From a bacterium (GTDB lineage Bacteria > UBA8248): a stretch of DNA of 64,000 bases. Shown in pieces: positions 22,539 through 26,077 of this stretch. Where the stretch lies: the NCBI GenBank assembly GCA_022828125.1, contig JAJEJD010000024.1:172763-236762 (forward strand). Direction: 5' to 3'. The notes under the pieces are model-generated. The model saw only the letters and a list, made by a program, of their open reading frames with translations, had not been told where the DNA came from and did no database searches. The translations under genes and the position numbers were made by a program. Position 1 is the stretch's first letter, and each line of letters opens with the position of its first letter.

Positions 22539-23402
22539 ATGTCGTATTCCGGTATTGCCGAACTCGCGGAGGGAAAGGTTTACGCCCTCCACAACACGTT
22601 CCCGCTGGACGGGCGCATCAGCGCATACCCCATCAGCGCGCGCGGGCACAGCGTCTCGAACTGCTATCTCCTGAAAGAAGACGCGGGCGCCCTCCTGCTC
22701 GACACGGGCTACGCCGCCCACGAAGCCGAGATTCTGGCGCAGATGGAATCCCTCATCGCGCCGGATACGCCGCTGCACCTGCTCCCGCTGCGCATCAACG
22801 AATTCATGTCGGTGGGAAACGCCATGGCGATCGCCAGGCGCTTCAACGTGGTGGAGTGCCTTGCCCCCGTGCCGGAGATCAACGAGTGGCTCGAGTTCGA
22901 AGCGCTCGAGCCGGGCGGCGGGACGGGCGGCAACCCCGTCCTGCCCACCACGATACTGAAGCCGCTCCATCCCCTTGAAATCGGGGAGCGGTACATCGAG
23001 GTGATGAACGCGCCGATCCGCCTCATCAGCACCCGCTGGATTTACGATGCGGCCACGCGCATCCTGTTCACCTCGGACATGTTCAGCCACCTCTGGGCGG
23101 AGGGGGCGGAAGGCCCCTGGCTGCTGGACGAAGACGACGCCACGACGACCTCCTTCGTCCGCTCGTTCCTGCTGAACACGCGCTACTGGTGGCTCGAGGG
23201 CGCGAGCACGGACTCCATCCGAAAAGGCATCATGGAAGTCTTCGAGCGCTATGACATCGAGACCATCGCTCCGGGCTACGGCGCCATCCTGCGCGGGCGC
23301 TGTCTGGTCGAGCAACAATTCGCCGTGCTGGACGAGGTTCTGGCGGGTCTCGACAAAGGCGTCGTCAAACCGGGCTACGTCGCGCTGGGCCTGGAGAGAT
23401 AG
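22539..23402 (+). CDS. metallo-beta-lactamase fold protein with degenerate metal site
   Basis: MBL-fold protein of 287 aa, first of a two-gene unit. The fold is recognisable (SNCYLLKEDAGALLLDTGY, then LFTSDMFSHLW), but the usual HxHxDH or HxExDH stretch is replaced by RINEFMSVGN, and the late GH motif by GYGAIL. Only Asp/Glu positions remain, so a normal dinuclear zinc or iron site is unlikely. It could be a non-catalytic partner of the next gene, or bind something else. Start ATG at 22539; the next gene begins 8 bases after its stop. Confidence 0.75.
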   Translation: MSYSGIAELAEGKVYALHNTFPLDGRISAYPISARGHSVSNCYLLKEDAGALLLDTGYAAHEAEILAQMESLIAPDTPLHLLPLRINEFMSVGNAMAIARRFNVVECLAPVPEINEWLEFEALEPGGGTGGNPVLPTTILKPLHPLEIGERYIEVMNAPIRLISTRWIYDAATRILFTSDMFSHLWAEGAEGPWLLDEDDATTTSFVRSFLLNTRYWWLEGASTDSIRKGIMEVFERYDIETIAPGYGAILRGRCLVEQQFAVLDEVLAGLDKGVVKPGYVALGLER

Positions 23403-23410
23403 GAGCGCGC

Positions 23411-24172
23411 ATGAGCTATCCCCTGCCCCGAGAAATATCGCCCGGTGTCTTCTGGCTCGGCGACTGCCTGGTCCAGCACTCCCAGGGCAAGATATATCAC
23501 TCCTACAACGCGGCCTTCCTCGTCATCGGCTCAGAAGCCTCCATGCTCGTGGAGACGGGACACCCCAAGGATTTCCCCATCATCGAACGCCAGATGAGGG
23601 ACATCCTGGCTCGCGGCGGAGGCCCGCTCAAACACCTGTTCCTGACCCATCAGGAGACGCCACACTCGGGCGGTCTGGGCCGCGTGCTCGACCGCTACCC
23701 CGACCTCACCATCCACGGGGACATGTGCGACTACCACCTGGCGTTTCCCGAACACGAAGGCCGCTTCAAGGAGATGCGCGTGGGAGACGCCGTCGATCTG
23801 GGCGATACGAAGTTCATGGCCGTGGAGCCGGTGATCCGGGACTTGCGGAGTTCTCTCTGGGGGTTCGAGACCAAAGGGCGTGTGCTGTTTCCGGGAGACG
23901 GCTTCGCCTACAGCCACTACCACACGGACGGCCACTGCGGGATGTTCGCCGAAGAGGCCACATCCCTCGATCTGGTCGACGTGCTGGGCGTTTTCGCCGA
24001 GCGCGCCCTGTACTGGACCACCTTCACCGACATGAACGTCTACGCCGACAAGCTCGAAGAGTTGATGGACGGGTTGAACGTCGAAGTCGTCGCGCCGACG
24101 CACGGCCTCCCCATAAGGGACATCGCGCAAACGATGCCGAAAGTCCGGGAGGGCCTCATCCGGGGCGATTGA
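23411..24172 (+). CDS. metallo-beta-lactamase fold hydrolase
   Basis: MBL-fold protein of 253 aa, with the metal-site loop LTHQETPHSGGL (a variant of HxExDHxGG with Pro for Asp), FPGDGFAYSHYHTDG as Asp ligand region and PTHGLPI as last His. This resembles the diiron flavodiiron/ODP branch without its flavodoxin domain. A TAGGAG ribosome site precedes the ATG. Eight bases after the degenerate paralogue, so they are probably cotranscribed and may pair. Substrate unknown. Confidence 0.78.
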   Translation: MSYPLPREISPGVFWLGDCLVQHSQGKIYHSYNAAFLVIGSEASMLVETGHPKDFPIIERQMRDILARGGGPLKHLFLTHQETPHSGGLGRVLDRYPDLTIHGDMCDYHLAFPEHEGRFKEMRVGDAVDLGDTKFMAVEPVIRDLRSSLWGFETKGRVLFPGDGFAYSHYHTDGHCGMFAEEATSLDLVDVLGVFAERALYWTTFTDMNVYADKLEELMDGLNVEVVAPTHGLPIRDIAQTMPKVREGLIRGD

Positions 24173-25038: not shown

Positions 25039-25602
25039 ATGCAAGAAGGTCCCGTCGACGGACACTCCACTTCCACCGTGCCGGGCGAGCGCGTCATCGA
25101 CAAGCCCGAACTCCCCAAAGGGGGGCTGTATACCGACAACACCGTCCACACCGAGATGCACGAGGGCTCCCTGCAGCTCAAACGCGGCACGGCGGGCAAG
25201 TTCGAGATTTTCTGCGACGAGGGCGCGAACATCGGCGGCACGGCGCAATACCCCACGCCGATGGCCTATCTCGCGATGGCGACGGGGTTCTGACTGCTCA
25301 CCCAGGTGTCGCGGTACGCGCACATGATGAAAATGGAGATCAAGGGGGCGAGCGTCTCGGTACGGTTCCGAAAGCTGCTGGGCGGCTCAGTGCTCAAGGG
25401 CACCGTGTTCAACAAGTGGGAGGCCGTGGACACGCATCTCAAAGTCGAATCGGACGAGCCCGCGGAGAAGCTCGCGCACCTCATCAAGAACGCCAAGAAC
25501 GGCTGTTTCGCCGAGGCCCTGATCACCGAGCCGGTGCCGCTCCACTCCACCGTGGAGGTGAACGGCGAACCCTTCGAGATAGAGGGCGTGACGGCGGATT
25601 AA
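25039..25602 (+). CDS. OsmC-like selenoprotein (in-frame TGA at the peroxidatic Cys)
   Basis: OsmC/Ohr-fold thiol peroxidase, 187 aa if TGA 25291-25293 is selenocysteine 85. The part before the TGA (KRGTAGKFEIFCDEGANIGGTAQYPTPMAYLAMATGF) and after it (LLTQVSRYAHMMKMEIKGASVSV) are in one frame and join as a normal OsmC protein, where the residue at this spot is the peroxidatic Cys. A second Cys (156, in KNGCFAEALI) matches the resolving Cys. ATG follows AAGGAG. A strong hairpin 12 bases after the TGA could be the SECIS. Only 22 bases separate it from the phosphatase selenoprotein gene. A nonsense mutation is the alternative, but its exact position argues against it. Confidence 0.83.
25306..25323 (+). 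promoter_or_regulatory. candidate bacterial SECIS hairpin of the OsmC-like gene
   Basis: GTG-T-CGCG closes on CGCG-CAC over a GTA loop: seven base pairs with a single bulged T, which is the looped-out U-type feature known in some bacterial SECIS. The loop starts 20 bases after the TGA with G, inside the expected 16-37 window. Confidence 0.6.
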
Positions 25603-25624: not shown

Positions 25625-26077
25625 ATGGAATACTTCCACGCATCAGAGGATATCGCCTTCGGCTCGCAGCCCGAGCCCGCGGACCTGGAATCCCTCGCCG
25701 CGAGAGGCGTCAAGACCATCATCAACACGCGCTTTCCCGAAGAAGACCAGGGCGAATTGCCGCCCGAGCGCGCAAAGGCGGAGGCCGAGGCGCTGGGGAT
25801 GCGCTACGTGAACGTCCCCGTCTCGCCCGTCGAGTTCAGCCCCGCCTCGCTGGCCGAGGTGAGCCATGCGCTTAATGAAGCCAAGGCCCACGGCCCGACC
25901 TTCGTCCACTGAAAGGCCACGGGGCGGGCCGGGATTTGCTCGCTGAACCATCTGGCGGATGAGAACGACTGGAGCGCGCGGGAGATGGAGGGAGCCGCCG
26001 ACGCCACCGGCTTCGACTGGCGCGAAGCGCCGTTAGCACCCAAGTACCGCGAGTTCTTCGCAAGGAGGCCCGGGTAG
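25625..26077 (+). CDS. DUF442/beta-lactamase-hydrolase-like phosphatase, candidate selenoprotein (TGA at the catalytic Cys)
   Basis: Cysteine-phosphatase-fold protein of 150 aa if TGA 25910-25912 is Sec96. Before the TGA: FGSQPEPADLESLAARGVKTIINTR and GMRYVNVPVSP, then GPTFVH. After it, in frame: KATGRAGICSLNHLADENDWSARE, to a TAG at 26075. The normal protein would read FVHC-x4-R (Arg101), the P-loop with the catalytic Cys. Cys105 lies nine residues on and could form a selenenylsulfide. It follows the OsmC-like gene by 22 bases with its own GGAG-type site and presumably shares its transcript. A redox rather than phosphatase role is possible. Truncation to 95 aa at the TGA would remove the whole active site. 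Confidence 0.75.
25924..25943 (+). promoter_or_regulatory. candidate bacterial SECIS hairpin of the phosphatase-like gene
   Basis: GCGGGC (25924-25929) pairs with GCTCGC (25938-25943), six pairs with one G-U, extendable by another G-U. The eight-base loop starts CG and lies 17 bases after the TGA, within the bacterial SECIS window. A shorter GGCC/GGCC pairing competes with it. Confidence 0.5.

What the first reader, a model, noticed from the sequence alone, without database searches (positions are those of the whole stretch)
25625..26077. Possible previously undescribed selenoprotein family: DUF442/BLH-like phosphatase with Sec as the P-loop nucleophile
TGA at 25910 lies right after FVH and before KATGR, where cysteine phosphatases of this fold carry the catalytic Cys. 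The frame then continues for 54 residues of clearly family-like sequence to a TAG. I know of no well-described Sec-containing DUF442 phosphatase. Pairing with the OsmC selenoprotein 22 bases upstream suggests a shared redox role, for example a Sec-based reductase or sulfide/persulfide-handling step, since DUF442 domains are often linked to sulfur metabolism.
Basis: partly seen in the sequence, partly recalled or inferred. Interest (0 to 1): 0.95.

Follow-up and report, generated by a model that had tools for sequence, protein, structure and literature searches.

The report
Selenocysteine enzyme on phosphatase fold
A gene from an uncultured bacterium carries an in-frame UGA exactly where related enzymes have their catalytic cysteine, as do the 21 other close copies found in its phylum, so it is predicted to encode a new selenium-containing enzyme family, likely one that handles reactive sulfur rather than phosphate.

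The parts
25625..26077 (+). Sec-DUF442 gene (150 aa with predicted Sec96), PF04273 domain
25910..25912 (+). in-frame TGA, predicted Sec codon 96, aligned with catalytic Cys of relatives
25923..25944 (+). predicted bacterial SECIS hairpin: 7-bp stem (25923-25929 with 25938-25944), 8-nt loop CGGGATTT
25937..25939 (+). TGC codon of Cys105, invariant in the 22 Sec forms and in Cys form P0033; candidate resolving cysteine
25039..25602 (+). upstream OsmC-like selenoprotein gene, in-frame TGA at 25291-25293; matches NF041052 OsmC_like_Se above cut-off

Best explanation
Window 25625-26077 is a DUF442/BLH-family gene whose codon 96, at the column of the family's catalytic cysteine, is an in-frame TGA that is predicted to be read as selenocysteine by the genome's own selA/selB/selC/selD system, so that it would make a Sec-containing DUF442 enzyme that likely moves or reduces sulfane sulfur rather than removing phosphate. 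Shown by sequence: the conserved TGA, the Sec/Cys column, the hairpin with nearly frozen synonymous sites, the presence of the Sec machinery genes. Predicted: the PTP/DUF442 fold with residue 96 at the strand-to-helix turn. Inferred: SelB recognises the hairpin; Sec96, with Arg101 closing a 6-residue CX4R loop, attacks the outer sulfur of a persulfide or thiosulfate-like donor to give a selenium-sulfur adduct; Cys105, four residues past Arg101 in the helix, may then resolve it as a selenenylsulfide and release sulfide, with thiols or thioredoxin restoring the selenol.
Against: No experiment shows Sec insertion or any activity. Hairpin energy is ordinary for such GC-rich codons (p 0.08-0.69, z -0.26); there are no two-sided compensatory changes and the column-shuffle control carries no signal; Rfam has no match there. 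Cys105 invariance may partly reflect the hairpin, since its TGC codon lies in it. Only one full-length close Cys relative was found (2 member sequences, contig 1,013 bases). Four genomes that hold the gene (G004, G013, G014, G015) have no selB match over the cut-off, G014 a partial one at a contig end. The usual neighbours (SirB1-like, ilvD) do not point to sulfur. dN/dS past the TGA is low in genus g1 but 0.60 and 1.00 in the few pairs of g3 and g6. The distance from residue 96 to Cys105 was not measured.
Confidence: 0.7

Rival explanations
1. The gene is a Sec-containing protein phosphatase: Sec96 replaces the Cys nucleophile of a PTP/DSP P-loop and forms a phospho-seleno intermediate.
Against: Loop is CX4R, not CX5R; Ala instead of Ser/Thr after the Arg in 22 of 22; no invariant Asp between residues 60 and 95 that could be the general acid (the need for these is recalled knowledge). 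DUF442 domains assayed in two papers are sulfurtransferases.
Confidence: 0.1
2. The Sec enzyme is a thiol peroxidase or general selenenylsulfide oxidoreductase (Sec96-Cys105 pair), acting with the Sec-OsmC protein in genus g1.
For: Both Sec genes are adjacent in 5 of 5 group-a copies; Cys105 accompanies Sec; many selenoproteins are homologous to thiol oxidoreductases (PMC13188914, section 7 parts 1 and 2 read).
Against: 17 of 22 copies have no OsmC within the flanks searched, 5 kb upstream for most, 484 bases for G008; the PTP/DUF442 fold is not a known peroxidase fold (recalled); Cys105 geometry not measured.
Confidence: 0.17
3. The TGA is a true stop: a 95-aa protein, or a decayed gene, with the downstream frame a relic.
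For: Public protein sets hold 95-aa products.
Against: 22 of 22 copies keep the same TGA and the open downstream frame with W132 and the RAG..CS motif invariant; selection past the TGA is like that before it in genus g1 (median dN/dS 0.177 against 0.186; 0.158 against 0.131); truncation would remove the catalytic residue and a core helix.
Confidence: 0.03

Closest known systems
DUF442 sulfurtransferase domains of Blh (X. fastidiosa) and of C. pinatubonensis SQR
   Same: PF04273-type domain and catalytic Cys column; 6-residue CX4R loop with closing Arg, as CRTGTR in the SQR domain
   Different: Cys instead of predicted Sec; fused to ETHE1 or SQR; the window protein scores below the TIGR01244 and Blh cut-offs
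NMA1982 (2f46) and Shewanella DUF442 protein (3gxg)
   Different: 18-21% identity, Cys forms, no proven activity seen here
Rhodanese-like selenoproteins (forms 1-5 of PMC13188914 Table 1)
   Same: Sec in a sulfurtransferase-type active site
   Different: PF00581-type families; the window protein matched no PF00581; motifs listed as UxxS, UxxG, CxU, UxxxxU
OsmC-like selenoprotein (NF041052)
   Same: the upstream gene matches it above cut-off
   Different: different Pfam family (PF02566) and Sec motif; adjacent in 5 of 22 loci only

Membership tests
bacterial selenoprotein | in-frame TGA aligned with Cys in homologues | tested here: met
   22 of 22 at codon 96; Cys in P0033 and in 85 of 85 proteins of the P0098 search
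bacterial selenoprotein | selA, selB, selC, selD in the genome | tested here: met
   own genome; in the relatives only selB was sought, over cut-off in 14 of 18
bacterial selenoprotein | SECIS hairpin just 3' of the TGA | tested here: met
   7-bp stem, paired in 22 of 22, nearly frozen synonymous sites; energy itself unremarkable, no compensatory pairs, bSECISearch not available
bacterial selenoprotein | Sec actually inserted | not testable with these tools
   needs 75Se labelling or mass spectrometry
PF04273 (BLH_phosphatase, DUF442) | score above gathering cut-off | tested here: met
   47.6 bits against 26.1
PF04273 (BLH_phosphatase, DUF442) | DUF442 fold | tested here: met
TIGR01244 / Blh (NF040641) | score above curated cut-off | tested here: not met
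   48.2 against 85.85 and 53.9 against 625 bits
classical PTP/DSP phosphatase | CX5R loop followed by Ser/Thr (recalled) | tested here: not met
   CX4R then Ala in 22 of 22
DUF442 sulfurtransferase by function | 6-residue loop closed by Arg | tested here: met
   U-x-x-x-x-R101 in 22 of 22; compared with CRTGTR
DUF442 sulfurtransferase by function | thiosulfate or GSSH sulfur transfer | not testable with these tools
   needs enzyme assay
rhodanese PF00581 | Pfam match | tested here: not met
   no PF00581 at E up to 1

The most novel reading that the evidence does not exclude
A first selenoprotein family on the protein-tyrosine-phosphatase fold, in which Sec and an added Cys (U-x4-R-A-G-x-C) turn a DUF442 sulfurtransferase into a selenenylsulfide-resolving persulfide reductase, kept through most of one candidate phylum and paired with a Sec-OsmC protein in one genus.
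Probability: 0.35. Interest if true: 0.85.

Novelty: new variant of a known kind. Interest (0 to 1): 0.72.

Why it matters
It would add a fold family to the list of places where nature uses selenocysteine. The gene is truncated at 95 aa in public protein sets, which would explain why it has gone unseen. A matched set of Sec and Cys forms on a CX4R loop makes it testable why sulfur-handling enzymes recruit selenium.

Tried and rejected
Chance stop, pseudogene or sequencing error: rejected by 22 of 22 conservation. TGA reassigned genome-wide: rejected, three of the 22 genes end in TGA. OsmC as general partner: rejected, 5 of 22. Hairpin shown by energy or covariation: it was not. Rfam: one sub-threshold RNaseP hit elsewhere, nothing at the hairpin; this does not exclude a SECIS, since no general bacterial SECIS model was seen to respond. 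Sec and Cys rows as separate clades: neither shown nor rejected (p-AU 0.294). Coordinates of the model were not available to me, so the distance from residue 96 to Cys105 is unmeasured. Literature searches for the family: (selenoprotein with DUF442, 0 papers; TIGR01244, 2 papers; listings and abstract starts only), and word searches in PMC13188914, whose Table 1 I read in parts 1 and 2 of section 7 (part 3 not read). PMC2398784, PMC12013277, PMC9312934, PMC5823870, PMC8533005, PMC10839748, PMC11382960: passages only. Rows dropped before counts: 20 distant proteins of 112 (one search lists them; 19 show an HC motif, P0109 none by my pattern) and, for the CX4R count, P0196 and P0197, which have CX5R.

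Full report
Observation. The frame 25625-26077 reads 150 residues with one TGA at codon 96, after FVH and before KATGRAG. Residues 7-102 match PF04273 (BLH_phosphatase, DUF442) at 47.6 bits against a cut-off of 26.1. The upstream gene 25039-25602 has its own in-frame TGA and matches NF041052, OsmC-related (seleno)protein, at 168 bits against 95.

Conservation. A read-through search of 61 genomes gave 24 matches in 18 genomes: 22 with exactly one internal stop, a TGA, in 16 genomes, and 2 weak matches without stops (G007, G042). Reading the 22 genes out, the TGA is codon 96 in every one, and three of the genes terminate with TGA. A search of the 18 genomes held for the phylum repeats this: 16 hold the TGA form, G009 has no match, and G007 only a weak one without a stop whose printed DNA I read as HCQSANRTG. 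A scan of the genome-contig collection with one narrow peptide pattern gave 17 loci, titled Nitrospinota bacterium, Nitrospinae bacterium, Candidatus Tectomicrobia bacterium or simply bacterium; each has one stop in the match. One of them is isolate UBA8248, so the phylum is likely GTDB's UBA8248, called Candidatus Ibidiota in one review (passage read, PMC11382960). In the protein database, of 92 family proteins (112 found, 20 distant ones left out) 82 stop at exactly 95 aa, and 87 of 91 end in [FY][VI]H; two are named sulfur transferase of a Nitrospinae bacterium.

Sec/Cys pair. The full-length relative P0033 (53% identity) has HCKAIGRAGVCS where the window has HUKATGRAGICS. A search with the more distant Cys form P0098 found 85 proteins: all 85 have Cys in the column, 83 have a CX4R loop, 81 of these C-xxx-GRAG, and 2 have CX5R. 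Cys105 is present in 22 of 22 Sec forms and P0033, but the matching residue in those 83 is M (58), L (23), I (1) or P (1). Because its TGC codon sits in the hairpin, part of that invariance may be an RNA constraint; P0033, which should need no hairpin, keeps the Cys.

Hairpin. Downstream of the TGA, a GGGCGRGCCGGG-TTTGCTCGCT-like stretch is shared by distant copies. Among the 193 of 231 sequence pairs under 70% protein identity, synonymous identity in the best 8-codon window (codons 99-106) is 0.892, the highest of 125 windows, median 0.458. The 7-bp stem (25923-25929 with 25938-25944) holds in 22 of 22; 19 distinct rows show variation only at two pairs, G-U to A-U. Sliding the partner by 1-3 columns drops pairing from 100% to 32-56%, a control that favours a structure taken from these sequences. 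Against this, energies do not beat synonymous recoding, there is no double-sided covariation and the shuffle control is uninformative, and Rfam has nothing there. Minimum-energy folds of three OsmC selenoprotein genes of the same genome also show a hairpin about 16-34 bases from the start of their TGA (two further rows discarded as misread).

Sec machinery. tRNA-Sec (75.9 bits, cut-off 47), selA (575.9, cut-off 267.9), selB (384.5, cut-off 242.25) and selD (334.9, cut-off 125, itself with one TGA) are in the genome. selB is over its cut-off in 14 of 18 genomes of the family; the four below it (G004, G013, G014, G015; 67-91% complete) all hold the Sec-DUF442 gene, which incomplete assembly may explain.

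Selection past the TGA. Within genus g1 the median dN/dS before (codons 2-95) and after (codons 109-147) the TGA is 0.186 and 0.177 (group a, 10 pairs) and 0.131 and 0.158 (group b, 21 pairs); in g3 (3 pairs) 0.16 and 0.597, in g6 (3 pairs, 2 usable after the TGA) 0.341 and 1.004. Over all usable pairs, many saturated, medians are 0.27 (160 of 231) and 0.385 (143 of 231), with 16 of 143 at 1 or more.

Neighbourhood. Five group-a copies, all in genus g1, follow an OsmC selenoprotein gene; in each the tblastn hit ends 25 bases before the start, stop codon included, as in the window. Sixteen of 22 copies have a SirB1-like Transglut_core2 gene upstream (directly so in 15, further off in G013b) and ilvD downstream on either strand; hpnE is near 14 and a Sir2 gene near 12. 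The names were checked on the G000 copies. G013a has neither arrangement. The window copy's nearest relatives outside its genus, G017 and G012, sit in the SirB1-ilvD place, so the OsmC pairing is likely a later arrangement.

Mechanism. DUF442 domains tested elsewhere move sulfane sulfur: Blh's domain transfers sulfur from thiosulfate to cyanide and GSH (PMC5823870, passages), and CpSQR's loop CRTGTR needs its last Arg (PMC8533005, passages). The window loop U-K-A-T-G-R has the same length and closing Arg, and Ala follows it in 22 of 22. I therefore infer sulfur chemistry with Sec96 as nucleophile and Cys105 as possible resolver (about 0.5 for function, about 0.95 for Sec coding).

Novelty. The 2026 inventory (PMC13188914) covers 119 families/subfamilies; Table 1 was read, and the words PF04273, TIGR01244, phosphatase and tyrosine do not occur in its text. 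Full-text searches found no selenoprotein paper with DUF442, and the listings showed none on this family by title and abstract start. Subscription papers and preprints are not covered.

Noticed in passing
L029 5001-5444 (G000:C23:266734-267177, minus strand): A second Sec-DUF442 copy in the same genome (45% identical), between a SirB1-like gene and ilvD.
   Followed up: yes
L049, L051 (G000:C15:647686-648114; G000:C5:49666-50067): Two further OsmC-Se genes over the NF041052 cut-off, each with one in-frame TGA; the C5 one lies just upstream of a SelD-like gene (L090, 91 bits, below the selD cut-off).
   Followed up: partly
L083 (G007:C43:4969-5202): In a genome that lacks the Sec form, a Cys CX4R cousin (HCQSANRTG) lies next to a reading frame that looks like a YeeE/YedE transporter (recognised by eye).
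   Followed up: no
window 22539-24172: Two adjacent genes upstream on the + strand that look metallo-beta-lactamase-like by eye; the second weakly resembles flavorubredoxin.
   Followed up: no
L089 (G000:C30:4116-5078): selD of this genome carries one in-frame TGA, so it is likely a Sec-containing SelD.
   Followed up: no
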